Assembly (NCBI GenBank): GCA_021018995.1
Contig: CM037588.1
Coordinates: 141,109,725-141,173,724 of the forward strand
Direction of reading: 5' to 3'
Origin: Chloranthus sessilifolius
Lineage: Eukaryota; Streptophyta; Magnoliopsida; Chloranthales; Chloranthaceae
DNA: 64,000 nt
The position numbers were made by a program, and so were the translations under genes. The notes beneath the pieces were generated by a model that made no database searches, had not been told where the DNA came from, and was given only the letters and a program-made list of their open reading frames with translations. How positions within the stretch are numbered: position 1 is the first letter of the stretch; each line of letters begins with the position of its first letter. Shown here in pieces: positions 20,918 to 43,070 of this stretch.

Positions 20918-21090
20918 CTGGCGCAACTAATAGTTGCGCCAGGTATTTTTCCCCCAGAAATGGCCTGGCGCAACTATTAGTTGCGCTAGGAATAAGTGGG
21001 TCCCCCAGCCCCTCGCGAGGCTAACTTCCAGGGAACTGTGCAGCACTGTTTTACTGTACATTTGCCTGGCGCAACTAATAGTTGCGCCAG
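20918..21090. repeat. Palindrome array A in U3 (3 copies)
   Basis: CTGGCGCAACTA, one central base, then its reverse complement, at 20918-20942, 20965-20989 (one mismatch) and 21066-21090. The first two are 47 bp apart. In the first and third, one more base on each side also pairs. All lie 280-460 bp upstream of the TATA box. Confidence 0.97.
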
Positions 21091-21372
21091 GCATATGAAC
21101 AGTAACTGTTCAGTTTTGCCCCAAAATTCGTGATTGGGGTTTGACTTGTTGACCACCTCGACCTTTGGGGTGTGTTTTGATAGTCCTGTTGCACCCATTC
21201 CTTACCTATTGGCAACCCCTTTAGTGGCTTAAGGCCTCTCCCCATCATCCACCATTGGAGGACCTTTCCACACCTTTCAAAGCCCCAAAAACCCTAGGAA
21301 TCCTTAGATGCAAGATTACCTAATTGATAAACCCAATTAGCATCTAAGTGGCCCCCTAACCCACCCATTTCC

Positions 21373-21380
21373 TATAAATA
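21373..21380 (+). promoter_or_regulatory. TATA box of the 5' LTR
   Basis: TATAAATA in a C-rich context (CCTATAAATAGAGCCCC). It is conserved in the 3' LTR at 42341-42348. Transcription should start about 30 bp downstream, near 21405, which would make everything to its left U3. Confidence 0.8.
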
Positions 21381-22105
21381 GAGCCCCCCACCCCTTGGTT
21401 TAAAGGTTGAGAATTTTGCTTAAGAGAGAAAGAGCTTCAAAGTGAGAAGTTCTTCCTCCCTTTGCTGCACTATTTTCACCTAAAATTCCAGACTTCTAAA
21501 ACCCCTTCCAAGCTTGTTCTTATATAAAAAACCCATAGCCTAGGTGTGTGTGATCCCCTAGCCTCCCTTCTCCTTCCCTTAGCTTCAAGCCTTAGTGGTT
21601 AGAACCCATTTCTCTACCATTCAAGCCTTCAAAAGCTCATCAAAGCCAGCCAAGCAAGGCTCCTCTACGGTGCTACAAGGGCCCGAGGGCTCCGGCTCTC
21701 CCCTTTCTTCTCCTATCTCTTTCTAGCTCCTTCCATCCTCTCATTTGTGCCGTTACGCCGCCAAATTTTCGGTAGGAACGGAGGGGCACAAATAGCTTTG
21801 GAGGTCCATTTGGGCAAGAGAGAACCATTTCCTTTTCTTTTACATCATTTTATTTTTGGCCATTAGTAGAGACCGCATTAAGCGGGTTGATCGGGTGCTT
21901 AACTCCTTCCCGATCGATAACCGAAGCCCCTACCCAAGAGCCTTTGGTGTGGACCGGATTCAGAGTCATATTTTTAGCACTTCGGTGCTCATAAAAATGA
22001 ACTAGGTATCCCGGGACACAGAAAGCTCTGGGTGGCGACTCTATATTTTTCGTCAGAGAGCGCATCGTCGCGACAGGACCGTCATGGATCCCACGGTTGT
22101 ACAGA

Positions 22106-22123
22106 TGGTGACTCTGCTGGGGA
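22106..22123 (+). promoter_or_regulatory. Primer-binding site of the giant element
   Basis: TGGTGACTCTGCTGGGGA starts two bases after the LTR end. The form resembles PBSs of Ogre/Tat elements, for which tRNA-Arg has been reported as primer; the exact tRNA is inferred. Confidence 0.85.
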
Positions 22124-22239
22124 GTAGCTAGTAGAGCTTCCCCTTGAACTAGGCCTTTTTCTTTTTTATTTTTCTAACATTTTATTGCTGTTTTTTTATT
22201 ATTTTTGCTGTTTTTTTTGTCACTCACCCCTCCGATTAC

Positions 22240-22530
22240 GTCATTTTACTCACCCCTACAATTCCGCTTTAAATTTCTGCAATCTTTGCCTAGTCACTTG
22301 ACTGGCACCTTTTTTTACTCACCCCTACGATTCCGCTTTAAATTTCTGCAATCTTTGCCTAGTCACTTGACTGGCACCTTTTTTTACTCACCCCTACGTT
22401 TCCGCTTTAAAATTTCAGCAACTTTTTGCCTAGTCGCTTGACTGGCACTTTTTAAATTTCAGCAACTTTTTGCCTAGTCACTTGACTGACACTTTTTAAA
22501 TTTCAGTACTTTATATTTCCCGCCTAGTCG
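22240..22530. repeat. Leader tandem repeats, 69-bp then 44-bp units
   Basis: ATTCCGCTTTAAA recurs at 22261, 22330 and about 22399 (period 69). Then AATTTCAGCA recurs at 22411, 22455 and 22499 (period 44), the shorter unit being a derivative. Every unit carries a GCCTAGTCRCTTGACT word. Located between PBS and gag. No coding frame. Confidence 0.9.
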
Positions 22531-23025
22531 CTTGACTAACCCTGTTATTTTATTTATCATATCCTAACAGTGGACGCCGGCCCATAGTGGTGGCACTGGA
22601 TAATCACCCCCGGTCTTTGAACTAAAGAAAACTTTCAAAAAAAAGAGAAAAGTTTTGAAAAATTAAAATTGAACCAAGTTAGGGAGCTTAATAAATCTGT
22701 TTTGCGGGATAGATTTTTCAAAAGGGTTGGTTTAGGCACACATACAAACACCCGGGTCTTAGTATGGCGGCAGCCCCTAGTGGTGATGATCCAGAAAAGT
22801 CCCAGCCCACCTAGTATTTGAGAAGGCGCATACTGGGAAGTATATCTGGGTTCCCATTCCTACAAAGCTTAAAACCCTTGGGGAGCGCTAGAATGAAGTT
22901 ATACGGACTCAATCCTTTAGGCGTGGTGAGGAGAATTGATCATTAAGAAGCCTAGCCTCCACAAAAAATTAAAAAGAGACTCATTTCGGGCATCGGGCTG
23001 CTCGTTTCCGAGAGGCAGTATTTAT

Positions 23026-23193
23026 CTGGCGCATGTATTAGTTGCGCCAGTGTAAAAACACTGGAATTTATAACTGGCGCAACTAATAGTTGCGCCAGCT
23101 TTAAACTCCCATATTTTACCTTGGCGCAACTAATAGTTGCGCCAGTGTAAAATTTGTCCCTTGCAACCTTGGCGCATGTATTAGTTGCGCCAG
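23026..23193. repeat. Palindrome array B before gag (4 copies)
   Basis: Copies at 23026-23050, 23074-23098, 23121-23145 and 23169-23193, spaced 48, 47 and 48 bp. The second is a perfect palindrome. The first and fourth share a CATGTA variant in the left arm, suggesting that a two-unit block was duplicated. The array lies about 500 bp upstream of the gag start, in the transcribed leader. Confidence 0.97.
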
Positions 23194-23689
23194 GTGTGTT
23201 CAGCAACACCCTAGCCCGAATCTGTGGCCTTTTCACCTCCCGAGTTTCCCGATTAGTGTGCTCAGTACCTTCTTTGGGCCCCGCCACCTCCGACACCCAA
23301 TACGCTCCCTCCAGTCAAAAGAGGATAACTTCTTTTGGCTCATTCCGGGGGATCGGGTTGTTTGCCTCATTTTTCGTACCTTCAATAGATCGGAGGTTAT
23401 CCTTCGATTCTTCCGAAGTGCATCGGAATCGTCGCCGTGGGTCTTGAATTAAGGTACGAAGGCCACCCGAAAAGGGAATTCCAAGGCCTCGGAACCTCTA
23501 TTTTTCAAAAAATCTTCATAAAATTCAAAAAATATAAAAAAAATAATAAACAATTTAAAACCCAAAAAATAGATAGTTTGTGGTGCCGGCACAACGACAT
23601 CATCTTGTCCTCCGTCATCCCATAGGGGAAGAAGGAGAAAGATATTTGGGCCTTACCCAAGGCACCCATACCCGACCCGATACCGAGAC

Positions 23690-25785
23690 ATGTCGTGGGT
23701 AGTGGACCCGGCTTACGCCGGTCCTGACTCATCCCCACCACACTCTCCAACCCACTCCCATTCGGGAGAAGTCTTTTCCACCATCCCCCTCACGCAACCT
23801 CCCTTTACCGTCACCGGCCCATTTGGCGCCCCCATATTCCCAACCACTACCCCCCAAAATATCCAAAATCTAACCCCTCATTCCCCATCTTTTGCCCAAA
23901 CCATGCAAAACCCTAACCCATTCTCCCAATCCACATCCATGCCCCAATTCCCATCATCCCCCTATAGACCCGATCCGCCCTCATTCACCTATGTCACCTT
24001 TGCCCTAACCAATCCCCCACAAATCCCCCCATCTACACAGGTCATGCCCGTTTTTACCGAGGCCATGCCCAATTTTTCCCAAGCACCCACCCTTTACCCT
24101 CCATCATCTTTAAACATCTCCAACCCATCCCCCTTCACCAATGCTCCCCATTCCTTTAACCCCTCCCATATCCCATCACCTACCGGGGCCATGCCCAATT
24201 GTCCCCTCACATCCACCCCATCCATACCTAACCATCCATTAAATCCACCATCCACTTCCGATCCTTCCTCCATGGCCATGATGGAGGAGATGTTCCAAGC
24301 CTATTCCATATGGAAGGCTTCCCAAAATACCTCTCCTCCACATCCCACATCCATGAACCCATCCCATACCTTAGCCAATCTCCATGCCTCACTCCCCCAT
24401 GACCCTCATCAACCCCCCATAATCCACACCATCCAAACCCCCTTTTCCCACATGCCCCAAGGCCCCATGGCCCAAACCCCCTTTTTCCATACACCCCAAG
24501 GCCAAATGGCCCAACCTCCAAACTCCCACATATCCCAAGGCCCATTGGCCCAAGCCCCCTCTTCCCACATGTCCCAGGGCCTAATGGCCCAACACCCCAT
24601 CACCCATGCTCCCCAAGGCCCATTGGGCCAAACCCATCAAATCCAAACCCATAAGGGGCCCATGACCCAAATCCACCAATGGCCCATCAAGGCCCATTGG
24701 GCCAGACCCATCAAGGGCCCATGGCCCAGACCTAGCAAGGCCCATCGGGCCAGACCCACCAAGGGCCCATGGTCCAAACCTACCCTGGCCCATTGGCCCA
24801 AACCTACCAGGGGCCCATGGCCCAAACCCATCAATGGCCTATGACCCAAAATGATCAAGGGTTTGTGGCCCAAACCCAAACCCCATACTCATACCTTCCA
24901 CAATACCCCCAACACCTAACCCAACCTTCACAGCTGGGTCAAACCCATGCTGTCCCCCAAACCCAATTCCCCCATGGCCCCACACCCCAAGGCCATCCCC
25001 AAACCTTCCCTCACACCCAATGGTCCTATCCGACCCCACTTCAAAACCAAATTCCCATCACTCAACAAGCCTTTCCACACCCTCAATGGGCTCACCCAAC
25101 CCCTACTCATGTCATTCCCATCCAACCCATGCAGCAACAAGTTGAGAATCCCGTCTTCACTGCACATTACGCCGATCAGCAGTATGAAGAGGATGAGATT
25201 AGAAATAGCGGGGCCTATGCTGGGGCATTGACCAGCCTTCACCCTCCTCCCATAATTTTCCATCCCCTGATAGCCCAGAGTGAAGTCCAACCAACTGTCG
25301 AGAAAGCAGCTCCCGTGTCCAAAGAGTCAGAAGAGCTGAAAGAACAGTTGGATAAAATACAGAAGCAGTTAATGAAGATGGATGGTGCTGAAATCCACGC
25401 CACAGACTTCACAGACCTATGCCTGTTCGTTGAGGTCCCCTTGCCCCCCAAGTTTAAAATGCTCGCCTTCGATAAATATAATGGCACGGGCAATCCTATT
25501 GCGCACCTCAAGTCCTATTGTGGGGACATGTGCCAATACGGGGAGGATGAAAGACTGCTGATAAAAGTCTTTCAGAAAAGTTTGACTGGGCCGGCTTTGA
25601 GATGGTTCACATCCTTAGAATCATCTATGATGAAAACATGGAGGGACTTAACGCACCTCTTTCAAGAGCAGTATGTCTACAACATAGACATTGAGCCGCG
25701 CAAGTCCGACTTGGCCCGTTTAAAGCAGAACCAGAACAAGACCTTCAGCGATTACTTGGGTCGATGGAGAGCGCTGACAGCTTAG
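23690..25785 (+). pseudogene. Gag of the giant element (Pro-rich N-terminus, capsid core)
   Basis: The start at 23690 opens MSWVVDPAYAGPDSSPP, followed by nearly 330 residues dominated by Pro, Gln, Ser and Met, then octapeptide repeats of GPMAQTHQ type. A one-base frameshift near 24680, inside the repeats, moves the frame. The shifted frame continues to 25785 and holds the capsid core: LPPKFKMLAFDKYNGTGNP, ALRWFTSLE, MKTWRDLTHLFQEQYVYN and FSDYLGRWRAL. A TAG at 25783-25785 replaces an expected Gln; the homologous text runs on to about 25960. Structural protein of the particle. Confidence 0.88.
24650..24880. repeat. 24-bp minisatellite inside gag
   Basis: Units of about 24 bp around AGGGCCCATGGCCCA, eight or so copies, coding for octapeptides of GPMAQTHQ type. 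Most carry the palindromic word GGCCCATNGGCC. Longer, less regular units precede it from 24450. The reading-frame switch of gag lies at its left edge. Confidence 0.88.
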
Positions 25786-26107
25786 ATCAGGAACAGAATA
25801 CCTGATGAGGAACAGATAGAGATGATTTCGAAGAGCACTCTGCCAGTGATCTCTGATTTTCTTGTATACCAACAGCAGTCTAGTTTTGCCGACTTGGTAA
25901 GGAATGCCAACCGATGCGAGGATGCCATCAGGGAGGGACGTCTAAGTAAGAACACACCGAGTGGACCCAGTGGGGTTAGAAGGTTTTAAGAGTAGAGGAA
26001 TGAGAAAAGAATAGGGGGGCGATGTCCAAAACATAGCCAACACCAGGCCCAATAATAATATCGCCTGCTCCAATTTTAGGCATTTCAGCACCGCTAGGCC
26101 TGAGCAG

Positions 26108-27340
26108 ATGCAGAGAATGGGGAATGGGCAAGGAATGCAGATGACTCCGGAACAGAGGAGAGCTCGCTACGATCGAGTCTTCACACCTCTGGGGCAATCT
26201 TTGAGTGTACTTTTGCCCCTGTTAGTAGAAAAGGGATTAGTGGCTATCCGCCAACCGCAACCTCCCCCTCACCCGATCCCAAAGAACTATGACCCAAATA
26301 CCCACTATAATTTTCATCAGGGTCCGGGCCATCCTACTGATCACTGCTTCCCATTGAAGCACGTGATCCAAGATTTGATAGAAGCCGGAAAAATCATTCC
26401 CCCTGCACCCTCTCAGCACGCTAATATCCACCAGGTGCCACTACCCCCACATCCCACTGAAGGAGCAGGTCCCAGACCCACCATCCGAATGATAGAGGAT
26501 GAGGAAGAGTTTGAGTTTGACCCATTTGATTATGTCAGTGACCGGGAGAGTTATGTAGCACCATTGTTAAAAAATATTGAGGAAAGGAATATTGGGGTTG
26601 TTGAACCCCTGAATTTGTCAGATTATTTTCCCAACCCGACTCTGCAATTGGAACCTTTGGATCTCAGGGCATATTTTCCACCCACCACACCTGTTAATTA
26701 TGTGAATATAAATGCATACCAACCATATACCACAAATCACCCAATAAGCCACCAGGCCCCCACTCCTATACCCACACCCACCAACTACCAATGGCCGGCG
26801 CCCGCCCCATTCCAGCTACCGCCATATACCACAACCCCCATCAACTACCCCATAAACCACCAAGCCCCCAATCCAAAACCCACACCCCTCAGTTATCAAA
26901 GGCCTATGCCCATCCCATCATCCCCAATTCAGCCGCCAGAAAGCCCCATCACCCCGGTCAACTACCTGACGGCTCATCAGGCCCCTCATATCCCATTAGT
27001 ACCCACCGGCTATCAATGGCCTGCTTTTACCTCTTTTCCTTCGGTGCCACCACACCCAAGCTTCACAAACCCCATTTGGCCTAATCTTTCCACCCAACCC
27101 ACAGCCACCGAGGTGAACCAAGTATTACCCCCACTTCCTGAGATGATAGTACAAGTGCCTCAAGCACCGGCAGCCATACCTTTCCAGCTCTTGGGACCAA
27201 CCTATGATCCTCATCAGGTCCCACTGAGCTACGAACAAACAGATGTCAATGCCGGTAGTAGAAGCAGAGAAGGGGCAGTAGATTTTGTTACTAGGTCTGG
27301 GAGGATATCAAAGCAGCCGGAAGCACCAGCAGCAGCATAG
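26108..27340 (+). pseudogene. Gag C-terminal part (nucleocapsid-like, Pro-rich tail)
   Basis: An open frame of 410 codons. PEQRRARYDRVFTPLGQSLS opens it, then HYNFHQGPGHPTDHCFPLK, which aligns with the Tat-type Gag zinc-knuckle but has Asn where the first Cys is expected. An ATFP-type linker to the protease follows, very rich in Pro, Thr, Asn and Tyr, with several near-repeats of an NYQWPAPAP motif. The first ATG here is not the natural start: this is the continuation of gag after the stop at 25783. Confidence 0.8.
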
Positions 27341-27370
27341 GCCCAACCCGAAGGAAAGAAAGATAGCGCG

Positions 27371-27904
27371 GTGAACCCCTTTGAGAAGATGAGTCGAGAA
27401 CACATATTGGAGACTCAGCTGAGAAGAATGCCGGCCCATATCACTGTATGGGACCTATTGATGACGTCCCCACTCCATTTCCAAGTATTAATGGGGGCGT
27501 TGAAGAATGCGCATGTATCGCTCCAGGTCATCCCAGATGAAGTTGGGCAGATAATTGGGCAAGTGATGTCTCCGAATGCCATTTTGTTTTCTGATGCTGA
27601 TTTGCCAGAAGAAGGGTGTAGCTATTCCAAGTCTTTGAATATAATTGTTGAGTCCGGAAACATGGTCATTCCCTTAGTACTAATTGACAACGGGTCTGCA
27701 TTGAATATATGCCCGTTAAGAACCGCCACCAAGATCGGGGTTGACCCATGCATGTTAAGGCCCACCAGAACCAGCGCTAGAGGATTTGATAATACCAGAA
27801 GAGAAATAATGGGAGAAGTTGATCTTGAGCTATTGATAGGGCCAACGACCTTTTCCATCTTGTTTCAAGTCATGGATATTAAATCTTCCTTTAACTTATT
27901 ATAG
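27371..27904 (+). pseudogene. Tat/Ogre-type aspartic protease
   Basis: A 177-residue frame. LIDNGSALNICPL is the Tat-type active-site loop, with Asp-Asn-Gly (27686-27694) in place of Asp-Ser/Thr-Gly, as is normal in the lineage. Upstream is the HITVWDLLMTSPLHF segment that precedes protease in these elements. The fold closes with VMDIKSSFNLL and then a TAG; the usual LLGRPW motif is disrupted just after it. Confidence 0.88.
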
Positions 27905-28025
27905 CGGAGCCATATCGCCACTTTACACCGTAAGCTCAAATTTGTGTCTCGCATAAATCATTACAATCATTGGGGAGGGGCATGGTGAGAAAGAAAAAGC
28001 CACCAATAGTGTTGAAAAACCTAAT

Positions 28026-28529
28026 ATGCTGGATGTACCACACACCGCTGAGGACGTCGACCTCCACATTTTCGAATACGAGGTGTCGGCAATACTCCCA
28101 GAGCCCATGGAGGGCATCATGTCTAAAACGGGAGGCGGTATGGTAGCAGCAGTGGAAATGCTCCAAAAGTGGGGCTATAAGAAAGGAAGGGGTCTGGGAC
28201 CCAAATTACAAGGTAGAAGAGAGCCAGTTGTGGCTAAGGGACAAAAAGTAAGATTTGGGCTGGGATACAAGCCCACAGAGGAAGAGGTTCGAGAGGCCAA
28301 AGAGAAAGCCAGGGTCGCCGCAGCTACAAGAGCTCGAGGAATCAACATAGAAGAGAAACCTCGCCCTAGGCCACACATCAGGGATTCCTTTGTCAGCATA
28401 GGGGTCGTAAAGATTGATCAAAATGGGGCAACCCATTTGACCCCACAACCATCCACCAATCCGATCTCCTTCCCAGGAGATAGATTTGGCCGCATTGTCC
28501 CTTTTCGAGGAACGACGGTCGGTACCTGA
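28026..28529 (+). pseudogene. G-patch-like domain and linker downstream of protease
   Basis: A 167-residue frame. Residues 39-84 (28140-28275) read VEMLQKWGYKKGRGLG, then RRE and KVRFGLGYKPT, with the glycine spacing of a G-patch. Such a module after protease is seen in plant Tat-type polyproteins and, independently, in betaretroviruses, where it binds nucleic acid. The frame differs from that of protease, so at least one frameshift lies at 27904-28030. Function in this element is inferred. Confidence 0.72.
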
Positions 28530-28842
28530 ACAAGCTCCCCCTGTGGTGAATCACCACAAAGTCATGTTAACATTTGAGGATATCATCTCAGATGAAATGG
28601 GGATTAACATGATGGAGGCTGGCTCCAATAAGCCATATCAGCCATCACCCTCCATCCCAACAGGTAAGGAAGGCGGCCCTCAGTGCAGAATCGGGCATCT
28701 TGCCCCAAACTCGAAGGTGAAGTGGCCTAAAGTTTGGCGCCTGCTTCCCAAAAAAAAATAACCTATAAGAAGTGAGATAAGCCCTTGGCTGGCAATACCT
28801 TGTGTATATAGCAAACTGCCTTGCCAAGGGCCCATCTCCGAA

Positions 28843-28985
28843 GAAAACAAAAATCTCAAAAACATCGAAGAAAACAAAAATCTCAAAAACATAGAAGAAA
28901 GCAAAAATCTCAAAAACATGGAAAAAATGCAAAAATTCAAAAACATGGAAAAAATAGAAAATCCCAAAAACATTGAAAAAATCCA
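28843..28985 (+). repeat. 27-bp in-frame repeats, Lys/Asn-rich
   Basis: Five units of nine residues with consensus NKNLKNIEE (TCTC marks at 28854, 28881 and 28908, period 27). They lie in the RT frame between the G-patch region and the RT start. The right-hand units are more diverged (KNMEKMQKF, KNIEKIQSP). Possibly a short coiled-coil or RNA-binding spacer. Confidence 0.85.
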
Positions 28986-30700
28986 AAGTCCAAAAATATT
29001 GTCATTTAAAATTCCAGAAAATGCCCCACAAAAGGATGCCTTAATCGAAATACCCATCCCATGTAAAATCGACCCCTTTCCTGTAGAAATACAAAAAGAG
29101 GAAGGCATTACGAGTTTGGACGAGGATGTCCCCCTCGAGGAGCTCCCCAATGAGCTCCTTGACCGATTTGCCGACTTTGAGCATGGCCCTACCTCAATTG
29201 TCGAAGAGACCGAAGACGTCAATCTAGGAACTGAGGAGGTTCCCAGGATAACCAAAATTGGAACATCACTATTTCCTGAGGAAAGAAAGAGCATGATCGA
29301 CTTCCTTCGGTCATACCAAGATGTTTTTGCCTAGTCATATGAGGACATGTCTGGTCTAGATACCGATTTGGTCGAGCATGAGTTGCCCCTCTACCCCGAT
29401 GTGAAGCCAGTCAAGCAGAAGCTGAGACGTCTCCGACCCGAATGGATGCTGAAAGTCAAAGATGAGGTCATCAAGCAGTATGACGCGGGGTTTCTCATGG
29501 TATCCAAGTACCCACAGTGGCTAGCCAATATCGTACCTGTACCAAAGAAGGATGGAAAGGTCCGCATGTGCATCAATTTTCGCAATTTGAACAGAGCGAG
29601 CCCAAAGGACGATTTCCCACTGCCACACATCGACATCTTGGTCGATGACACAGCTAAGCACGGGATGCTCTCTTTCATGGATGGATTTTTAGGATATAAT
29701 CAGATTAAAATGGCAGAGGTTGATCGTGAGAAGACATCGTTCATTACCCCCTAGGGAACCTTTTGCTATCGAGTCATGCCATTCGGGCTGAAGAATGCCG
29801 GTGCGACGTACCAGAGAGCTATGACTGCACTATTTCATGACATGATGCATCGAGAGATTGAAGTATATGTCGACGACATGATAGCAAAATCACCAGAGCG
29901 AAGTGACCATCTGGTAAACCTTCAGAAGCTGTTTGAAAGGCTGAGGAAATATCGACTACGTCTGAATCCACAGAAGTGTGCATTTGGCACTATGTCAGGG
30001 AAACTGCTAGGGTTCATCATCAGTAGAAGGGGGATCGAGGTTGACCCAATCAAAGTTAAAGCCATCACTGAAATGCCACCGTCGCCCATCGAGAAAGAGG
30101 TTAGAGGGTTCTTGGGTAGAATACAGTACATTAATCGGTTCATTGCACAACTAACTCCTATCTGCACGTCGATCTTCAAGCTGCTAAGGAAGAATTCTCC
30201 CGTTGAATGGAATGATGATTGTCAGGCAGCGTTCAATAAAATTAAAAGCTACCTCCTGAATCCACTCGTTTTGGTACCACTTGAGCCGGGAAGACCACTC
30301 TTAATGTATCTCTCCACAACGAAAGTTTCGATGGGATGTGCTTTGGGGCAGCACGATGAAACAGGAAGAAGAGAGCAGGCCATTTACTATCTGAGCAAGA
30401 AATTCACTGATTACGAGACACGCTATTCTCACCTGGAGAAAGCATGCCTAGCCCTTGTATGGGCTACCCAGAGGCTCCGCCACTACTTTCTGTCTCAAGC
30501 CGTTCTACTTTTAGCCCGAATGGACCCGTTGAAATACTTATTTGAGAAGCCGGCTCTTACTGGGCGGATTGCACGATGGCAGTTGTTATTATCTGAATTT
30601 GACATCACGTACGTCACTCAGAAATCGATCAAGGGGCAGGCACTTGCTAACCATCTCGCCGACAATCCTTTACCCGACTATGAGCCGTTAAGGACTGAGT
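28918..30700 (+). pseudogene. RT and RNase H of the giant element
   Basis: One frame runs from 28918 to 31065, broken only by TAG codons at 29332-29334 and 29752-29754, both at expected Trp positions (FAxSYEDMSGL and ITPxGTFCYR). RT motifs: LVEHELPLYPDVKPVKQKL, VRMCINFRNLNRASPKDDF, MLSFMDGFLGYNQIKM, MPFGLKNAGATYQRAM and YVDDMIAKS (YVDD at 29866-29877). The first RNase H follows (LEKACLALVWATQRLRHY) and lacks the first catalytic Asp (MYLSTTKVS), a known Tat trait. Without the two TAGs it would be a full-length RT. Confidence 0.93.
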
Positions 30701-31145
30701 TCCCAGATGAGGATATCTTGTTCATGACGGAGGATGATACTGAAGAAGCAGAAGAATCATGGGTAATGCACTTTGACGGGGCTGCCAATGCCGAGGGTCA
30801 AGGAGTTGGCGCCATTCTGATTTCGCCAAAAGGATCCCACATACCCGTCTCTATCAAGCTCAACTTTCCTTGCACTAACAACATGGCTGAGTACGAAGCT
30901 TGCGTCACTGGTCTGCAGGCAGCTCTCGATCTGAATGTAACTCACCTTCGAGTATTTGGCGATTCACAGTTAATCATATGCCAGACGAATGGTGACTGGA
31001 AGACGAAAGACGAGAAACTGATCCCCTATCACGAACACCTCGAGGACCTGATAGCTTGCTTCTAAGATGTGACTTTCTCATATGTCCCCCGGATAAGGAA
31101 TTGCTTTGCTGACGCATTAGCAACCTTGGCGTCAATGATTGAAAT
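30700..31145 (+). pseudogene. Archaeal-type RNase H (Tat hallmark)
   Basis: MHFDGAANAEGQGVGAILIS (first Asp), NNMAEYEACVTGL (Glu), VFGDSQLIICQTNGDWKTKD (Asp) and, after a TAA at 31063-31065, NCFADALATLAS (last Asp). All four catalytic acidic positions are present. The domain was acquired by the Tat lineage in addition to the ancestral RNase H. Only the stop in the C-terminal helix breaks it. Confidence 0.92.
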
Positions 31146-33888: not shown

Positions 33889-34182
33889 TCAGCGGCCCAG
33901 CTCACGCTTCAAGGCGCTAATCTCAGCATTAAGGTCATCCTCTCGGACATTCCTCTTAGTTAGCCAATGTCCATGCAAGCTCTTAAACCTCTTCCCAAGC
34001 GAAGGACCTCACTCTCCCTCAGACGGCTCTAACCTTCTCATGCGCCAAAAGCTCTTGCAGAGCCCTCTTCTCGTCCACCAGAAAGTTGATGCGAGCTCGA
34101 AGTGCCGTCTCTTTCTTTGGCCAAGGACCCCCAATGTCAATGATCTCTGACGAGTCTGGGCAATCCGTATCAGGTCGCTCAG
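33889..34182 (-). pseudogene. Frame-broken C-terminal tail of the DUF7745-like gene
   Basis: Immediately downstream of the stop at 34183, other minus-strand frames read EIIDIGGPWPKKETALRAR, then INFLVDEKRALQELLAHEK and, near 33889-33950, REDDLNAEISALKRELGR before a TGA. These charged Leu-rich stretches look like one coiled-coil tail broken by two or three frameshifts. The ancestral protein was therefore probably about 480 residues. Confidence 0.6.
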
Positions 34183-35343
34183 TCAATAGCCAGGCCTCAT
34201 CTCAGGAGAAACCCTAACTGAGTCTCCCTGCTCAATGTCGCACATCAGCGTCGATTGACGCGTCTCCCAAAGAGCAGCAATCCGATCCATTTCCCCAGAT
34301 GATCCCCTAGAAAAACTCACATCGCATAAAGGAGGCCTGGCCTCACAAGGAACCTGTTGAGAGTAGCCAAACTGGAGCAGTACCCGGAATGGGAAGTAGA
34401 AGGTACTGCCGGTCAAGCCTAGGAGGGTGATGCACTCTTGGTCTCTAGAGCGAATCACTGGGAAGGTCCGATCCAACCAAGGGAGCCTCCATATCAGCTC
34501 AGCGTCAACCAACCAAAGTTTCAGAGCTGGCACGTCGCCCTGTGGAAGCAGGTGGCATCTACCTAGAAAACATTGAACCACCTCACCTCGGGCGATATAA
34601 AAGCGGGGCACAGGCCCCAGAACAGCAAAATGCTCACCCAGCCAAACCTGGAGCAACAAGGGACATCCCCGAAGACCCTCCGCCTTACCCAGAGCAAAGG
34701 AGTCAAGGCATCGATATAGCTCGGCCAGCACCAAATGCATCAGGGACCGGCCCGCCTCCAATTCCATCAAAACATCACAAATTGCCAATGAGAAGCTATC
34801 TCCCCCAGTATAGAAGAGGATTTCGGAGATGAGACCGAGCGCTAGAGCTTTCACATTAAAGGCGTTCCTTACTGGCAATTTTCGTAGACTTTCATCGCCG
34901 AAAAGTTCTTTGAGGAATTTTAGCGAACACCTTGTGGGCCCCCCGACGAGACTTTTCTCATACTCGGATTTCTTCAAACCAAGAATAAGGTGGACAGATT
35001 TGGAATATCCCGGTCGGGGCATGACTCTGGCAAGGACCCGGTGAAGCTTTAGGTCAGATAGATTGGATAGCTCTTCAAGGGTTGGGGTCAGCTCCCGCTT
35101 CCCAAAACGAAATACGTGGGAGCTCACATCCCAAAATGAAGCAGCAGCATGAAGAAATTCCCATCGGAGAGGAACCTTTAAGAAGGAAGGAAGGCGAGAT
35201 AGCCCAAGGCATTCCAAATCGGCGAGCTCGCTCTCATTCAGGCTCCCAAACCAAGCCATTAAGAATTTAGGCCCCCCACCCAACAAAGAGGATAAGTCGG
35301 CTCCGGGCCCTCCACGTAAGGGAGGGTTAGAAAGCGGGTCCAT
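34183..35343 (-). CDS. Antisense accessory ORF, DUF7745-like (plant-mobile-domain-related)
   Basis: An uninterrupted 386-codon ORF on the strand opposite gag-pol. It shows WEFLHAAASFWDVSSHVFRF and then ELTPTLEELSNL, the WxPxxxxFxFxxxELxPTLEE pattern of DUF7745/plant-mobile-domain families, and further on FSLAICDVLMELEAGRS and GCPLLLQVWLGEHF. These families are found mainly in transposon-derived plant proteins; their biochemical role is unknown. The start at 35343 gives MDPLSNPPLRGGPGADLSS, and palindrome array C lies 165-335 bp upstream. It is the longest undamaged frame in the right half of the element. The family call is from memory of its motifs, so moderate. Confidence 0.72.
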   Translation of the reverse strand: MDPLSNPPLRGGPGADLSSLLGGGPKFLMAWFGSLNESELADLECLGLSRLPSFLKVPLRWEFLHAAASFWDVSSHVFRFGKRELTPTLEELSNLSDLKLHRVLARVMPRPGYSKSVHLILGLKKSEYEKSLVGGPTRCSLKFLKELFGDESLRKLPVRNAFNVKALALGLISEILFYTGGDSFSLAICDVLMELEAGRSLMHLVLAELYRCLDSFALGKAEGLRGCPLLLQVWLGEHFAVLGPVPRFYIARGEVVQCFLGRCHLLPQGDVPALKLWLVDAELIWRLPWLDRTFPVIRSRDQECITLLGLTGSTFYFPFRVLLQFGYSQQVPCEARPPLCDVSFSRGSSGEMDRIAALWETRQSTLMCDIEQGDSVRVSPEMRPGY

Positions 35344-35507
35344 GAATGCACAAGGATCTTTTGAGAGGATAAAAGTCAGTGTATGGTGATGGACCCGCCT
35401 TGGAAAAATGAGAGCAGAAAGAACCGGTCAAAGGAGCCAGGTCAAACAGAAAGAGCTGATTTCTGGGCCCACTTTGGACATATAAAAACCCATCACGACA
35501 GTTTGAG

Positions 35508-35676
35508 GTGGCGCAACTATTAGTTGCGCCAATGAATTGTTTCCCCCAAATAAGCCTGGCGCAACTAATAGTTGCGCCAGCATCTTCTGGCTCCCAAATC
35601 CTATTGGCACAACTAATAGTTGCGCCAGCATCATCTGGCCCCCAAATCCTGTTGGTGCAACTATTAGTTGCGCCAC
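35508..35676. repeat. Palindrome array C upstream of the antisense DUF7745-like ORF (4 copies)
   Basis: Copies at 35508-35532, 35556-35580, 35604-35628 and 35652-35676, spaced exactly 48 bp. The second is perfect; the others have one to three mismatches in the outer arm. Spacers of 23 bp share a CCCAAAT-type core with one another and resemble the spacer in the LTR array. Frames that read LAQLIVAP repeatedly are only translations of the palindrome. Confidence 0.97.
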
Positions 35677-36053
35677 ACCACGGTCCCCCCCCTCTACAGC
35701 CATGTTCAAAACTATTTTGAGGGGGGACTTTCACCCTTTTTGCTGTTTATTTTGTACACCTGCTTTTACGATCACTAACAGTTTAAAGCATCACTTTGTT
35801 ATGTGCAGGAGCGATCCTACATTGGGGCATTTAAAAACCGCTTTCTAAGAAGCGTTGGGCAAGCACATCCTGCAGAGAGATAGACATAAAGAACAAGGAA
35901 ACTATGACATGAATTCAAAAGCAAAGGTATTAAGAGCATTGTCAGAGATATATATCCAAAAGAAAATCATCACATCATCCATCCCATAAAATGTCTACAA
36001 ATCCAAATCCAACCGTAAAGGTACTGAATTTTAAAAGCAAAAAAGACTAAAGC

Positions 36054-38439
36054 CTATTCTTGGCTCGCCCCCTTGGACTTCTTGCGACGGCGAGAGGAGC
36101 TCTAGTAGGTCCTCATGTCCCCCACTCTGGACCATGCCTGCGAGATCCTACTCAGCAGGGAGCGCGACTCCTTAGCCCTGGCACACTGCAAAGCAAAATC
36201 AAGGCCAAGATCAGTACAGGGGCCAACAACAAAAAAGGAGGGAGAGGAGTTAAGCAGCCAGGTACTCACCGTCTCCACCTCCCCGAGCTCAGCCAAGTGA
36301 CGGTGATACTGTGCAAATTCCATTGTCGAGTTGAAGTCCTGCCAGATAATGATCAGTTGTCAAGACACCCCTAGCAGCTTGTGTAGAAGAAAACCAAAGT
36401 AGAGGGGGATTGACACATCAGAAGGCTTACCCCTGGAACCACCTCGGGAGGGGGAACGCTGGCCCCCTCAATTGAAAGCCGGGCCTGTCGATCCATGTCA
36501 GCACAGAGGCCTGAGAGGAAACTATCATCCAGGCGCCGGAAGGTCCCATAAATCACGGACGGGCCGCTTCCAGGGATATCCGCCTGAGAGGTACCCGATG
36601 GACCGGCACCCGAGGAACCATCACCCGAGGGACCTACACTGGAAGGACCAGCACTAGAGGGATCTACGCCAAATGCATCAGCAGTACTCGGCCCACCTTC
36701 ACCATCCGAATCATCTCCCGGAGCAAACTGGGAATAAAAGAAAGGATCTACTGAGACAAGGGCCGATTTAAAAAAAGTAAGGGGAAACTAATCTAAGTTG
36801 ATTACCTGATCAACCGGGCCGCCAAATGCCAGAAAGTTAGCGCTAGGGACCAAGCGCGGCAGGTTGAATCGATGAGGCAGACACTCGTACCAATAATGAT
36901 AGTCTCCAGGCACCTGAAGGGCATGAATGGGGAACCCATGGTTGAAGAAAGCCACCGTCAGCTCCTCAATGCTACCAGTAGGACTCCAAACATCTGCCGA
37001 AGGGTCTACAGGAATGGCGTAGTAGCCCTGGAACTGGTGTATCACCCTCTCCCCCAGATAGTAGCACCGAGCCCATGACCCGTAAAAGAAGATGGTGTGG
37101 CGGTTGTTAAATAGACGGGAGGCGCCCACAACTGCTCGATCCCAGAAGCGTGACGTCAGGTACGGGTCGGGGAGGATCTGCAACCAAGGAAGAGACACCA
37201 AGCAGGCAACACCTCAGCAAAGAAAAAAGAGAAGAAATGTCCAAACTAGAAGCGAACGAAGGTCGAAAAGTTGTCACCTGCTCAGGGACCATCAAATCAA
37301 GCTGAGACCTCAAGCCCATCTCTAAGTGCTTTAGGCCCACGTCGCGACGCCGGGAATGGTTCCAATTGCGGAGGAGGGGATAGGTAAACACCTCCGAGAA
37401 TAGGAGCGAGCGCACAGGGTGGAAGTGGTGATATCCCCACACCTGAAATGGAAGCAATGGCACAAAAAGCAGATCAGTAGCACATAAAGACCCTTCATTC
37501 AAAAATGGCAAAAAAAAAGGGATGAGGAATTACCTCCAAAGCAGCCCAAAATCCTCACAGACTTGAGTCCCCAACAGGACCCGTGTTAGGTTGTACATCA
37601 ACCATGCATATCCGCCCCTCCCAATCATACCTAGGAACGCCGCCCCAAGGATCCATCACGCTTAATAGGCCAGTCGACTGCCCCCACTGGCATTTGTAAA
37701 GAGGGTCTTGCCCAGCAGAAGTAGGAGAGTGATACGAGCCAGAACAATCGCACGCTCCGGCGTGATATAGAGCTCCTGGTCCGGATGACCCAGGTCCACC
37801 ATCTCATCAGCAGTAAAAAGGGAGGTCAACCAGGACATCTTGACCTCTATGCCGTGGGTCTACCCACGAGGAGGATAGGCTCCGATCAACCGAGTAACGT
37901 CCTCACGGCTCGGTGCTGCTAGAGTGGAGATCGGCACCCCCCAGATCCGGATACCAATAATCATGGCCCAATCAACAGGCGTTAGCATCATCTCTGCATA
38001 GGGAATGTGGAAGGTCATGGTCTCAGGCCGAAACCTCTCAATCAGACCGCTCTCATAAAGGTGATGAACTCTCCAAAGCCCACCTGCTCCAACAGGATCT
38101 TCACCACCGGAGGGACATAACGATAGAACTCATGGAAGTCGAGCCACCCCCCACGAAATACAATGGTAGGCAGCTCCTGCACCCAAAGAGATACACATCA
38201 GATTGCAGAAGTAGGGTAAAACTGCGCAAAAGAAAGAAATTGAACCTATCTGTTACCTTGCCCGCTATGCCGAAGTTTGAGATGTGAATGTATCACGATG
38301 TAAGAGGCCGACCCGGCAGCCTCACCTGCATCTCGAGCCATGGACCCGCCTCCGCTCCACCCAGGATAAATTGCTCTCGGGACCATACACTATCTCAGGC
38401 CCGCTCGACCTTCCTCGGATGTGCTCTTATCACCGACAT
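36054..38439 (-). pseudogene. Antisense multi-exon plant mobile domain (PMD) gene
   Basis: Seven minus-strand exons separated by six introns with GT-AG ends: 38177-38256, 37443-37533, 37178-37277, 36728-36805, 36339-36430 and 36186-36269 (78-100 bp each). The joined frame starts at an ATG (38437-38439) and reads PMD text: FRGGWLDFHEFYRYVP, FRPETMTFHIPYAEMMLTPVDWAMIIG (split by a frame break upstream), ELYITPERAIVLARITLLLL, VWGYHHFHPVRSL, ILPDPYLTSRFWDR. A TAG at 36102-36104 interrupts before a basic SSRRRKKSKG tail that ends at 36054. At least four stops (two TGA in exon 1, one in exon 2, this TAG) and one frameshift make it a pseudogene. PMD proteins of the MAIN/MAIL type act in the nucleus in silencing and meristem upkeep; the role here is unknown. 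Confidence 0.8.
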
Positions 38440-39640
38440 GTCAGGGGCAACAAAACAATATCAGTGATAAAAGAACCATTTATGTGCTACACGCCAAGGG
38501 AAGGTGAGTGTGCCCACCCCTTTTCCTCTTTCTCTAAAAAAAATAATAATACATAAAGATACACACACAAATAAAAATACCCCCTTTTAATGAGAAGAGG
38601 CCAAAAAAAAATCCCTTCCCTTTTTTATCTTCAAAAGCAAACAAAAACATCTCTTTCTCTTCCCATAAAATCAAAAATCAAAATAAATAGGTCCCGTAGA
38701 AAAATAACAAGAAAAACCAGGAATAAAATCCTCTTCCTTAATAAAATAAAAAAAAGAAGACACCCAAAACCATTTTTCCTTAACTTTCAGGAATAAAAAG
38801 GCAAAAAAAAAGATCCCTTACTTTCAATAAAACAAAAAAAAATCCCTTATCCTAAATAGGAAAAAGAAACAAAAAAATCTCTCTTCTCTACCTTGAATAA
38901 AGAGGCCCAAAAAAAATCTTTCAAAAAAATCCCTTATCCTAAATAGAAAAAAAACCTCTTCTTTACCTTGAATAAAGAGCCAAAAAAAATCTTTCACAAA
39001 AAAAAAATCCCTTACTTTAAAATAGAAACAAAAAAAAATCCTCTACCTTAATTAAAATGCAAAAAAAAAAGAGAGAGAGAGTAAAACCAAAAAAAATATT
39101 TTTAAATTAGGATTCAAAAATGTATAAAAAAAAAAGAAGAGAAAAAAAAATCATCATCATTGCTTTATATACAAAAAAAAAAAAAAAAAAAAAAAACAAC
39201 AAAAATGAAATCCCTTCTATATACACAAACAAACAAAAAAAAAGAAAAAAAAAACACAAAAAAAAAAATATATATATATATTAGGTACAAAAAAAAAACT
39301 ATAAAACACCAAAAATGGGGGCATTATTCATGAAAAATTCTCAACTCATCATCACTAAACATGCTCATAATAAAAATAAAAATCATTTATCATCAAGGAA
39401 ATACAAGATCATGATCACATTCACATAAAGGAGCAAGAAAAATCAGGAAAAATGAGTTTAAATGGTTACCCTATGAAGAAGAAGGGGTCTTTGCTGATCA
39501 ATCCTGAATAAAACAAAGGCAATGGGCACGTGAAGAGGCAATGTAAAGGACTAGGTAGGGGAGGCGTTATAAGAAAGAAGAGGAAGAAAAAATTGAATAA
39601 GACCCCACGACCGTGTTCGGGTGCCTTTTTAAACTCATTT
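38440..39640. other. A-rich low-complexity region upstream of the PMD gene
   Basis: Long A runs with interspersed ATCCCTTAYC and CTTGAATAAAGA words that recur between 38600 and 39060, giving weak tandem structure. A 25-A run lies near 39173-39197 and an (AT) run near 39267. On the antisense strand this is a T/pyrimidine-rich stretch between palindrome array D and the PMD start. No convincing TATA box. Confidence 0.6.
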
Positions 39641-39644
39641 AAAC

Positions 39645-39717
39645 CCGGAGCAACTAATAGTTGCGCCAGGCTATTTTGAGGCCTCTAGTGGCCTGGCGCA
39701 ACTATTAGTTACGCTAG
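39645..39717. repeat. Palindrome array D upstream of the PMD gene (2 copies)
   Basis: Copies at 39645-39669 and 39693-39717, spaced 48 bp, each with two mismatches to the consensus. They lie about 1.2 kb upstream of the antisense PMD start. Confidence 0.92.
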
Positions 39718-39719
39718 AC

Positions 39720-41505
39720 ACTTAGGCCAGGTCTTGGGCCGGGTTTGGGCCAGATGAGAAGAATGGGTCCCCCCTTCCCTTTGGATGGTTCATTCCGCTG
39801 CTCCCGTCCGATGCACGCGCCCCCAGGACGGCGTTTCGATTATCCTTCGACTTGCCGTGGAAGCCGTGCTAAAATAAAATGGACCAGGGTCAGCAAGTAC
39901 CTCGGTCCTACAAAAATCCCCAGCAGAGAAGCCAGAAGCATTCACAAAAGACTTCACAAAAAAAAAAGGGTAACACAATAAACTTCAAAGTTCCATAAAA
40001 TCCAAAAATATATACATATATATAAAACTCCAAAAAAATTCACATAAAATGATAGCTTTAAAAAAAAAAAATTTCAAAAAAATTCACATAAAATGATAGC
40101 TTTTAAATTTCAAAAAAATTCACATAAAATAATAGCTTTTTAATTCCAAAAAATTCACATAAAATTATAAACTTCAAAAAATCCCAAAAATCATACAAAA
40201 TAACAATCAGAAAAAATAAAAAAAATCATCATAAATGATAGAAAACCAAAAAAAATGGATTCCCCACAGGACGCACATGCGTGTTTCGATGCGGTAAAAT
40301 AATGTTTTATCGATAACGCAGATGTGCAAAATTAATGTCCTAGGTCAAAGGTTCGCCTTGGATCCATGGATCCTACTTCAAAGTAGGAGCAACGGTGTCA
40401 GTCCCGATCAAACAGTCAATGTTTCGATTGGGTCAACTCCACTGCTAAATGTTTTGAGCAATGAGCGCTTTGTTTTGGATTTGTGTGAACTTGAGTTGTC
40501 TTAAGCTTCAGATTCTCCGTTGAAAAAGGTTAATCGTTGGTTGAGACCAACCTGTTGGGAATGAGATTATGTGTCAATCAAACTATGTGCAACTATGCAT
40601 TCAGAAGGGTTCATTTCCCTTTTATTTTCTGCAGGCTTAAAACCTGTATAGGCAGTGGTATCCCTATAAAGTGTACGCCATGCGTCTGGGTATCCGTATG
40701 ATGGTCGTTTGTCCCCGTAAATTGTACCCGAGCAGGTCCGGGTCGGGACTTCCATCGCCTTTGTTGTTGCTTATTGCCCTAATGGGTGCATGATTATGCA
40801 TAGTTAATTGATGATTATGATCATTATCAAGAGAGGCCAGGATTGGATGCCCCCTTTTGGGAGGTGCCCAATGTTTGGCTGGATCTGTTCAAGGAAGTCG
40901 AAACTGGATCCTCTGGGTCATGTGGATCTGGGGCACGTTTTGAAAAATGGGACGCACTCCTAAAAAGCGTTGTGACATCTATTCACTTCGCTCAGGTGGT
41001 CATGCTAAATAAACTTCGGGATCGATGGGTTCGCCCAAAGATCTCGAACCCTGCTTTCCGCAGGGGCACCCGTGAATAATCCAATAAGGTCATCAAATGC
41101 CTTGTAGGATTGGACGCAAACTGTGGAGCCTTGCCTATGTTTACTTCGCACCTATCTTTGAATGTGGGTCGATCACTCCTCTTACTTACGAAGCTGTTGC
41201 ATTTATAATGAATCTCGAACATCGATACCTTCAAAATCATCCTGAGAAGTGAACATCTTTCCCGACTATAGGGAGTTCGCAACTCATTCCACCTCGGTTA
41301 TGCCCAGTAATGTCGCTAAGCGCTTGGGAACTGATTACCTCGAGAAACAAATGATTAGCCTGGCACTCCAGGACTTTCGTTTTCTCACAGTGTTACTCAC
41401 TTGATGTTTGAAGTTCATTCTGAATACAACGGACCCGTCAGTATTGCCTTGGGCCTCTTTGGATGTCTCTTTTCTTTGGCATACGATCACTAGTGATCGG
41501 ATACC
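39720..41505. other. 3' non-coding region before the 3' LTR
   Basis: From 40033 to 40165 an ATTCACATAAAATGATAGC-type unit of about 43-45 bp repeats three to four times. The rest (40260-41505) is unique-looking with no frame above 78 codons and no recognised domain. Confidence 0.5.
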
Positions 41506-41514
41506 AAAGAGGGG
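41506..41514 (+). promoter_or_regulatory. Polypurine tract
   Basis: AAAGAGGGG lies four bases before the TGTAGACG start of the 3' LTR; this is the expected primer for plus-strand DNA synthesis. Confidence 0.85.
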
Positions 41515-41518
41515 CATC

Positions 41519-43065
41519 TGTAGACGCCCAAATTTGGCCCAAGGCCCGATCGAAACACCATTCGAGAGAGGTGCAATTCTGAGCTTTTGATGGTATGAAT
41601 GGAACCCTTAGGGATCACCCCAAACCCTTAGGAATCACCCTATATCCCTTAGGAACCTATCCCAAATGTTTAGAAACTGATCCCAACTCTTAGAACCCAT
41701 CTCGAACCTTAAACCTAACCTTCTCAGGCAATGGATGAAGAGTGGTGCAGCAGGACTAGTTGAGGTCTTTTACTGATATCCAATCATATACCATTGGAAA
41801 GGGGACTTCTCTAGCTTTCTAACGAGCCAAGAATCACCCCAATCGGAGTTGTACATCAAAAGTTATGGCCATTTGAAAATCGGGCAGAATTTAGCCATTT
41901 TCCCCCTGGATTTGCCTGGCGCAACTAATAGTTGCACCAGGTATTTTTCCCCCAGAAATGGCCTGGCACAACTAATAGTTACGCCAGGCATAAGTGGGTC
42001 CCCTAGCCCCTCGCGAGGCTAACTTCCAGGGAACTGTGCAGCACTATTTGACTGTACATTTGCCTGTCAGTAACTGTTTAGTTTTGCCCCAAAATTCGTG
42101 ATTGAGGTTTGACTTGTTGACCACCTCGACCTTTGGGGTGTGTTTTGATAGTCCTGTTACACCCATTCCTTACCTATTGACAACCCCTTTAGTGTCTTAA
42201 GGCCTCTCCCCATCATCCACCATTGGAGGACCTTCCCACACCTTTCAAGGCCCCAAAAATCCTTGGAATCCTTAGATGCAAGATTACCTAATTGATAAAC
42301 CCAATTAGCATCTAAGTGGCCCCCTAACCCACCCATTTCCTATAAATAGAGCCCCCCACCCCATGGTTTAAGGGTTGAGAATTTTGCTTAAGAGAGAAAG
42401 AGCTTAAAAGTGAGAAGTTCTTCCTCCCTTTGGTGCACTATTTTCACCTAAAATTCCAGAATTCTTAAACCCCTTCCAAGCTTGTTCTTACATCAAAAAC
42501 CCATAGCCTAGGTGTGTGTGATCCCCTAGCCTCCCTTCTCCTTCCCTTAGCTTCAAGCCTTAGTGGTTAGAACCCATTTCTCTACCATTCAAGCCTTCAA
42601 AAGCTCATCAAAAGCAAGCCAAGCAAGGCTCCCACGGTGCATAAATGAGGGCTTCGCCTCTCCCCTTTCTTCTCCTATCTCTTTCTAGCTCCTTCCATCC
42701 TCTCATTTGTGCCGTTACGCCGCCGAATTTTCGGTAGGAACGGAGGAGCACAAATAGCTTTGGAGGTCCATTTGGGTAAGAGAGAACCATTTCCTTTTCT
42801 TTTACATCATTTTATTTTTGGCCATTAGTAGAGACCACGTTAAGCGGGTTGATCGGGTGCCTAACACCTTCCCGATCGATAACCGAAGCCCCTACCCAAG
42901 AGCCTTTGGTGTGGACCGGATTCAGAGTCATATTTTTAGCACTTCGGTGCTCATAAAAATGAACTAGGTATCCCGGGACACCGAAAGCTCCGGGTGGCGA
43001 CTCTATATTTTTCGTTAGAGAGCGCATCGACGCGATGGGACCGTCACGGATCCCACGGTTGCACA
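41519..43065 (+). repeat. 3' LTR of the giant element
   Basis: TGTAGACGCC to GGTTGCACA, 1547 bp, followed by the TSD GATCC. Co-linear with the 5' LTR. Differences include scattered transitions, an extra 17 bp near 41878 and a loss of about 30 bp at 42067 that removes the third palindrome. TATAAATA is kept at 42341-42348. Confidence 0.95.
41916..41987. repeat. Palindrome array A' in the 3' LTR (2 copies)
   Basis: Copies at 41916-41940 and 41963-41987, 47 bp apart, with one and two mismatches. They correspond to the first two copies of the 5' LTR. Confidence 0.95.
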
Positions 43066-43070
43066 GATCC

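What the first reader, a model, noticed from the sequence alone, without database searches (positions are those of the whole stretch)
20918..41987. A 25-bp palindrome repeated 15 times, always in front of a transcription unit of the giant retrotransposon
CTGGCGCAACTA, one base, then its reverse complement occurs in five groups: U3 of the 5' LTR (20918, 20965, 21066), before gag (23026, 23074, 23121, 23169), before the antisense DUF7745-like ORF (35508, 35556, 35604, 35652), upstream of the antisense PMD gene (39645, 39693) and U3 of the 3' LTR (41916, 41963). Within groups the spacing is 47-48 bp (one gap of 101). Spacers share a CCCCCARAAAT-like core, so the real unit is a 48-bp module. Seen: sequences and spacing. 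Inference: a dimeric DNA-binding protein, possibly one encoded by the element, recognises these as operator or enhancer sites and coordinates sense and antisense transcription. Alternatives: RNA hairpins for dimerisation or packaging, or mere tandem-repeat birth, which is common in Tat elements.
Basis: partly seen in the sequence, partly recalled or inferred. Interest (0 to 1): 0.88.

Follow-up and report, generated by a model that had tools for sequence, protein, structure and literature searches.

The report
Shared palindromic promoter site in retrotransposon
A giant plant jumping gene carries the same palindromic DNA tag beside its main promoter and beside two backward-running genes, and related copies keep the tag in the same places, so it is probably a protein docking site that co-controls the element's genes.

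Summary
The 15 palindromes are real and exactly where listed. They belong to one Ogre-like Ty3/gypsy element (LTRs 20538-22103 and 41519-43065, GATCC on both sides, LTR divergence 0.047). The host genome holds 45,397 sites with up to 2 mismatches; reversed control 0. In 20 loci picked by the palindrome, 95 of 95 palindromes map to the same four places of the family. In copies picked without it, the array is present before the antisense PMD/DUF7745 ORF in 19 of 20, before a second PMD-like gene in 9 of 10 and in 8 of 8 assessable LTRs of 10 stretches fetched. Ten loci of another PMD family have none. At the first promoter, palindromes are 0.83 identical between copies, spacers 0.55. Both antisense arrays adjoin TATA-like boxes; the gag-leader array does not. 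RNA-stem covariation is absent. Best reading: a promoter-proximal DNA site for a symmetric protein, shared by sense and antisense promoters. The binder is unknown; the element's own PMD protein is possible, not shown. Sirevirus palindromic motifs are a close precedent.

The parts
20538..43065 (+). Ogre-like Ty3/gypsy LTR retrotransposon that carries all 15 palindromes
   Evidence: LTR pair, GATCC at 20533-20537 and 43066-43070 read, gag/RT/RNase H/integrase domains
20538..22103 (+). 5' LTR; TATAAATA at 21373
20918..21090 (+). Array 1: three palindromes in U3 of the 5' LTR (20918, 20965, 21066)
   Evidence: same place in 8 of 8 assessable LTRs not picked by the palindrome
23026..23193 (+). Array 2: four palindromes in the 5' leader, about 500 bp before the gag ATG at 23690
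   Evidence: present in 7 of 7 leaders seen, all in loci picked by the palindrome; no conserved TATA after it
34183..35427 (-). Antisense ORF 1 (PMD/DUF7745 domain); first Met of the frame at 35343
   Evidence: dN/dS 0.18 and 0.17 against two copies; 107 scored relatives
35479..35485 (-). TTATATG, TATA-like box of antisense ORF 1
   Evidence: TTATATG or TTATATA in 18 of 20 copies; a stricter scan for TATAWAWA with one mismatch did not report it
35508..35676 (-). Array 3: four palindromes upstream of antisense ORF 1
   Evidence: in 19 of 20 copies
36052..38390 (-). Second antisense gene, PMD-like, in several frames or exons; limits not determined
   Evidence: one piece (37860-38129) matches PF10536 at E 5.3e-07, 29.6 bits, below the curated cut-off of 34.9; other pieces weak or none
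39626..39633 (-). TTTAAAAA, TATA-like box of the second antisense gene
   Evidence: TTTAAA-type box in the 9 copies that have the array, TATATAAA in one of them
39645..39717 (-). Array 4: two palindromes upstream of the second antisense gene
   Evidence: in 9 of 10 copies
41519..43065 (+). 3' LTR; TATAAATA at 42341
41916..41987 (+). Array 1 in the 3' LTR: two palindromes; the third is missing
   Evidence: 30-nt gap opposite 21069-21098
20999..21006 (+). GGTCCCCC just after array 1
   Evidence: one of only three in the window, both strands
35682..35689 (+). GGTCCCCC just after array 3
39766..39773 (+). GGTCCCCC 49 nt after array 4

Best explanation
The palindrome is a transcription-control site of a large Ogre-like retrotransposon family. 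It works as double-stranded DNA, bound by a protein or protein pair with two-fold symmetry. Arrays at 47-48 bp spacing lie next to the LTR promoter and next to the promoters of two antisense PMD-type genes, with one more array in the leader before gag. One binder would thereby act on the sense transcript and both antisense genes together. Shown here: positions, recurrence in other copies, conservation above the spacers, TATA-like boxes beside both antisense arrays, purifying selection on antisense ORF 1. Inferred: protein binding, its symmetry, activation rather than repression, co-regulation. The binder is not identified: a host transcription factor and an element-encoded protein are both open.
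For: 15 of 15 sites confirmed, 0 in 100 shuffles. 45,397 genome sites, reversed control 0. 95 of 95 palindromes in 20 palindrome-picked loci lie in the same four places. Not picked by the palindrome: 19 of 20 ORF 1 promoters, 9 of 10 second-gene promoters, 8 of 8 assessable LTRs. Another PMD family: 0 of 10. Palindromes 0.83 identical between copies against 0.55 in spacers; gag and DUF arrays unit by unit: 9 of 100 palindrome bases differ, 50 of 68 spacer bases. Spacing 47-48 bp in 42 of 44 and 15 of 16. TATA-like box beside array 3 in 18 of 20 copies and beside array 4 in 9 of 9 with an array. No compensatory changes as an RNA stem would leave.
Against: No binding, expression or transcript-start data. 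The leader array has no conserved TATA, and its palindromes are not clearly more conserved than the rest of the leader. At ORF 1 the palindromes are no more conserved than the stretch between array and ORF (0.83 against 0.80, p 0.34). The spacer of array 4 is better conserved than its palindromes (0.92 against 0.87, 91 aligned bases). The TATA-like boxes are mostly not canonical, and the strict scan missed the one of ORF 1. After insertion the palindromes are not spared (5 of 50 bases against 65 of 1482 outside), which fits selection on the replicating lineage but shows no use by the host.
Confidence: 0.75

Rival explanations
1. Narrower form: the binder is encoded by the element. An antisense PMD protein binds the palindrome and activates, represses or de-silences its own family, an autoregulatory loop like VANC in VANDAL transposons.
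For: Array 3 lies in front of the protein's own gene in 19 of 20 copies; the protein is under purifying selection, dN/dS 0.18 and 0.17; the palindrome was seen with this family and not with another PMD family (0 of 10). In print: PMD proteins MAIN and MAIL1 are needed for expression of genes sharing a promoter motif (PMC7156037, passages); VANC proteins bind tandem motifs of their own transposons (PMC5735166, passages).
Against: No DNA-binding domain was recognised in ORF 1 beyond PMD/DUF7745 and no solved relative exists to model it on; structure prediction never ran. A host factor explains the same arrays. Only one other PMD family was compared.
Confidence: 0.25
2. RNA hairpins: the palindrome acts in the transcript, for dimerisation, packaging or stability.
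For: The exact palindrome folds at -18.1 kcal/mol, z -7.05. The leader and 3' parts are expected in the genomic RNA.
Against: No pair with changes on both sides in the window set of 12 distinct rows. In 188 palindromes of 50 loci, Watson-Crick double changes number 10 against 18.0 in shuffles. Two leader units share a change that breaks the inner stem on one side. Arrays 3 and 4 lie upstream of the putative antisense starts.
Confidence: 0.07
3. Neutral tandem-repeat birth: the arrays are by-products of slippage without function.
For: Two neighbouring spacers of array 3 are 87% alike; Ogre and Retand relatives often carry tandem repeats (Retand: PMC11963269, sections read). Copy number per array varies.
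Against: Between arrays the palindrome stays alike where spacers do not, and across copies palindromes are more conserved than spacers. The four places recur (95 of 95).
Confidence: 0.08
4. Boundary, silencing or methylation target: the palindromes mark or insulate convergent units, or nucleate host silencing.
For: Convergent gag-pol and antisense genes share the element. The commonest changes in palindromes are C to T and G to A, as expected for methylated cytosines (established knowledge, not measured here).
Against: The U3 position and the closeness of arrays 3 and 4 to TATA-like boxes fit promoter control better. No methylation or small-RNA data are at hand. A host silencing target would not obviously be conserved by the element.
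Confidence: 0.1

Closest known systems
Sirevirus palindromic repeated motif, RM (Bousios et al. 2010, PMC2829016; section 9 and passages read)
   Same: Element-specific palindromes in many copies, clustered in the LTR before the TATA box and again before an extra gene between pol and the 3' LTR.
   Different: Carriers are Ty1/copia and the extra gene is a sense ENV; 12 of the 13 motifs have a CGG-CCG core and their clusters form CpG islands. Here the carrier is Ty3/gypsy, the extra genes are antisense PMD-type, there is a further array in the leader, and core and CpG island are missing.
Antisense extra genes of Tat-clade elements: maize Grande gene23, Retand TRP28, PMD in Ogre (PMC7264820 parts 1-2 of 3; PMC11963269 sections; PMC6317226 passages)
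   Same: [quoted passage not shown] Grande gene23 is reported to have its own promoter.
   Different: In what I read no palindrome shared by LTR and antisense promoters is described.
VANC and its target motifs in VANDAL transposons (PMC5735166, passages; PMC10398659, abstract)
   Same: Short family-specific motif repeated in tandem in several noncoding parts of one element.
   Different: DNA transposons; motif not palindromic in the passages read; the binder is known and element-encoded, here it is not known.
Promoter motif linked to PMD proteins MAIN and MAIL1 in Arabidopsis (PMC7156037, passages)
   Same: PMD-type proteins tied to a DNA motif in promoters.
   Different: Host genes and domesticated PMD proteins; the motif sequence was not seen by me and was not compared.

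Membership tests
Sirevirus RM | Dyad-symmetric palindrome in at least eight copies per element | tested here: met
   15 copies, 4 of them exact
Sirevirus RM | Clustered in the LTR upstream of the TATA box | tested here: met
   Arrays at 20918-21090 and 41916-41987, TATAAATA at 21373 and 42341
Sirevirus RM | Further copies before the ENV gene | tested here: inconclusive
   No ENV sought or found; copies lie before two antisense PMD-type genes instead
Sirevirus RM | CGG-CCG core | tested here: not met
   Sequence is TGGCGCAACTA-N-TAGTTGCGCCA
Sirevirus RM | RM clusters form CpG islands | tested here: not met
   CpG observed/expected 0.58, 0.95, 0.58, 0.78 and 0.31 in the five arrays, GC 0.43-0.51; window 0.63. 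No CpG-island program was run
Sirevirus RM | Carried by a Ty1/copia Sirevirus | tested here: not met
   Integrase domain lies after RT and RNase H, Ty3/gypsy order
Ogre lineage (Ty3/gypsy, Tat clade) | Additional RNase H between RNase H and integrase | tested here: met
   RT_RNaseH at 178-282 and RVT_3 at 340-436 of ORF 29755-31065, integrase in 31648-32223
Ogre lineage (Ty3/gypsy, Tat clade) | PMD in an extra ORF (reported in 57% of Ogre elements; Retand has Transposase_28 instead) | tested here: met
   PF10536 in antisense ORF 1, no Transposase_28 match listed
Ogre lineage (Ty3/gypsy, Tat clade) | RT phylogeny and primer-binding-site type | not tested
   No tree built, no tRNA compared
VANC-type self-regulated transposon | Family-specific motif in tandem in noncoding parts | tested here: met
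   95 of 95 palindromes in 20 loci lie in four noncoding places of the family
VANC-type self-regulated transposon | Element-encoded protein binds the motif and removes silencing | not testable with these tools
   Needs binding and methylation assays

The most novel reading that the evidence does not exclude
A retrotransposon-encoded regulon: an antisense PMD protein of this Ogre-like family is a dimeric DNA-binding regulator that recognises one palindrome at its own promoter, at the second antisense gene, in the leader and in the LTR, so that the family controls or de-silences itself in trans through tens of thousands of sites in its host. It would give the orphan PMD extra ORFs of Ogre elements a function.
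Probability: 0.25. Interest if true: 0.88.

Novelty: new variant of a known kind. Interest (0 to 1): 0.6.

Why it matters
Antisense extra genes of giant Ty3/gypsy elements are described as having no known function (PMC7264820). Here one conserved site ties the LTR promoter to two antisense promoters in many copies of a family, and it gives a short probe for a direct test: what binds it? If a PMD protein does, the site would explain why these genes are kept and would parallel VANC; if a host factor does, it names the signal that can wake an abundant element.

Tried and rejected
Exact 21-mer in viral contigs and genome contigs: 0 matches; genome contigs is prokaryotic and viral contigs is viral, so this says little. 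RT relatives in viral contigs: none confirmed. Antisense ORF 1 against the large protein set: none of the 8000 scored candidates. Against solved structures: none. The string TAGTTGCGCC in papers: 7 papers, unrelated by their titles, none opened. E2F-like and TCP-like sites (consensus sequences recalled, from no call): too few to build on. Helical phasing: 37-38 and 47-48 bp differ by about one turn, but the longer gaps (96-101, 130, 146) do not follow, so I do not rely on it. Mirror-symmetric conservation (Spearman 0.96): not used as proof, since decay of any perfect palindrome gives it. A spacer test with cheap gaps inflated spacer identity and was replaced by an ungapped one. Ten ORFs from elsewhere in the window were scanned to place the other palindrome arrays; this placed none of them.
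Full report
What is there. The window lies in a 2.17-Gb genome (G000:C5:141109725-141173724). From 20538 to 43065 it holds one LTR retrotransposon: an LTR pair, GATCC directly outside both ends, pol domains in Ty3/gypsy order with a second RNase H-like domain before integrase, and in antisense between pol and 3' LTR a PMD/DUF7745 ORF and a second PMD-like gene whose best piece is below Pfam's cut-off. The LTRs differ by 45 transitions and 25 transversions in 1532 aligned bases, K2P 0.047. Domain order and PMD point to the Ogre lineage, where PMD is reported in 57% of elements (PMC6317226, passages); no RT tree was built.

The palindrome. After them the next best window has 9 mismatches. Between arrays palindromes are 84-90% identical. 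Spacers are at chance for gag-DUF (0.33, shuffled 0.34) and gag-PMD (0.31, 0.31), slightly above for LTR-gag (0.41, 0.33) and DUF-PMD (0.37, 0.31), clearly above for LTR-DUF (0.48, 0.33) and LTR-PMD (0.59, 0.32). Unit by unit, gag and DUF arrays differ at 9 of 100 palindrome bases and 50 of 68 spacer bases. Three of four arrays are followed by GGTCCCCC, which occurs only these three times in the window on either strand; of up to 2000 random quadruples (close ones skipped) 112 shared some 8-mer among three members and 2 shared one as rare. This was noticed after looking. The arrays may be old copies of one block.

Other copies. The 23-base pattern has 45,397 sites with up to two mismatches in the genome, the reversed control none. 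I fetched 20 loci of 9.9 kb, the first 20 of about 39 clusters in the printed list, all on contig C1 and all chosen by the palindrome. They hold stretches 65-88% identical to the element, and all 95 palindromes with up to 4 mismatches map to the same four places: LTR 58, leader 22, second-gene upstream 8, ORF 1 upstream 7 (sites outside an alignment were placed by extrapolation from a hit within 600 bp).

Copies not chosen by the palindrome. Of 107 scored relatives of ORF 1 (13,143 first-look candidates) I took 20, about every fifth row. At up to 5 mismatches 19 carry the array, beginning 128-222 nt from the ORF start; one of these (L028) has a single site with 5 mismatches, and the twentieth (L034) shows four more degenerate copies by eye. 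Of 150 relatives of a second-gene exon I took 10 from the first 92 rows; 9 carry the array (L049 has none in the stretch fetched). For the same 10, stretches expected to hold the 3' LTR were fetched: 8 reached the array region and all 8 carry it, one stopped short, one had no LTR. Leaders were seen only in palindrome-picked loci, 7 copies, all with the array. Ten loci of another PMD family, chosen among 128 matches for open frames, have 10-12 mismatches at best and no palindromic array; they are alike and count as one family.

Conservation. In the ORF 1 promoter alignment of 20 copies, mean pairwise identity is 0.83 in palindromes, 0.55 in spacers, 0.80 between array and ORF, 0.87 at the ORF end, 0.70 beyond the array; palindromes exceed spacers (p 1.8e-13, columns not independent) but not the stretch towards the ORF (p 0.34). 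In the 20 palindrome-picked loci, identity to the window for palindrome/spacer/flank is 0.90/0.76/0.79 (5' LTR), 0.90/0.73/0.80 (3' LTR), 0.91/0.80/0.79 (leader), 0.88/0.55/0.74 (ORF 1), 0.87/0.92/0.75 (second gene). The second-gene spacer goes against the trend, and in the leader alignment the palindromes stand above their close flanks but not clearly above the rest of the leader. After insertion the palindromes are not spared: 5 of 50 bases differ between the two LTRs, 65 of 1482 outside. I read this as constraint on the replicating lineage and not on the resident copy.

Promoter anatomy. LTR: TATAAATA 283 bp after the last palindrome in the 5' LTR and 354 bp in the 3' LTR. ORF 1: TTATATG or TTATATA some 20-30 bp gene-side of the array in 18 of 20 copies, one changed, one deleted; a strict TATAWAWA scan reported none in the window. 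Second gene: a TTTAAA-type box 10-20 nt gene-side of the array in the 9 copies with an array, canonical TATATAAA in one; its coding start lies over 1 kb further on, so a leader intron is inferred. Leader: no conserved TATA between array and gag. So three of four places look promoter-proximal.

DNA or RNA. The exact palindrome folds well as RNA. But no pair shows changes on both sides in the window set, and in 188 palindromes (up to 6 mismatches) from L005-L054 Watson-Crick double changes are 10 against 18.0 in shuffles, 494 of 500 shuffles at least as high. This favours a DNA site.

The antisense protein. Against two fetched copies ORF 1 has dN/dS 0.18 and 0.17 at dS about 0.53: a protein the lineage keeps. 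In print, MAIN and MAIL1 are needed for expression of genes sharing a promoter motif (PMC7156037, passages), Grande's antisense gene has its own promoter (PMC7264820), and VANC proteins bind tandem motifs of their own transposons (PMC5735166, passages). An element-encoded binder is therefore plausible, no more.

Known or new. The Sirevirus repeated motif is a close precedent (PMC2829016), but carrier, core and CpG richness differ, so this is not a Sirevirus RM though it may work like one. Searches that could have shown such palindromes in Ogre or other gypsy elements (titles and starts of abstracts, few papers opened) showed none, in an open-licence library only.

Noticed in passing
21069-21098 against the 3' LTR near 42066: The third palindrome of the 5' LTR is missing from the 3' LTR (30-nt gap), so one LTR lost or gained it after insertion; loss at a hairpin is the simple reading.
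   Followed up: partly
6356-6964, 45560-45765, 47215-47480, 55646-56050: Other repeats rich in short palindromes with different motifs (TTGATCGATCAA-like, CAATCGATTG, TCGATTAATCGA), outside the element; perhaps LTRs of other families with their own motifs.
   Followed up: partly
27957-28529: A G-patch domain (PF01585, E 1.9e-11) in the pol region between protease-like and RT ORFs.
   Followed up: no
L045-L054, gene-side of array 4: Just past the TATA-like box of the second antisense gene, copies share an inverted repeat of the type GCCCGAAC-CGGGC.
   Followed up: no
L065-L074: A different PMD-bearing repeat family has internal tandem repeats but no palindromic array upstream of its PMD exon.
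   Followed up: partly
2354-3502 and 12207-14650, minus strand: RT, protease-like and gag fragments of other retrotransposons in the window.
   Followed up: no
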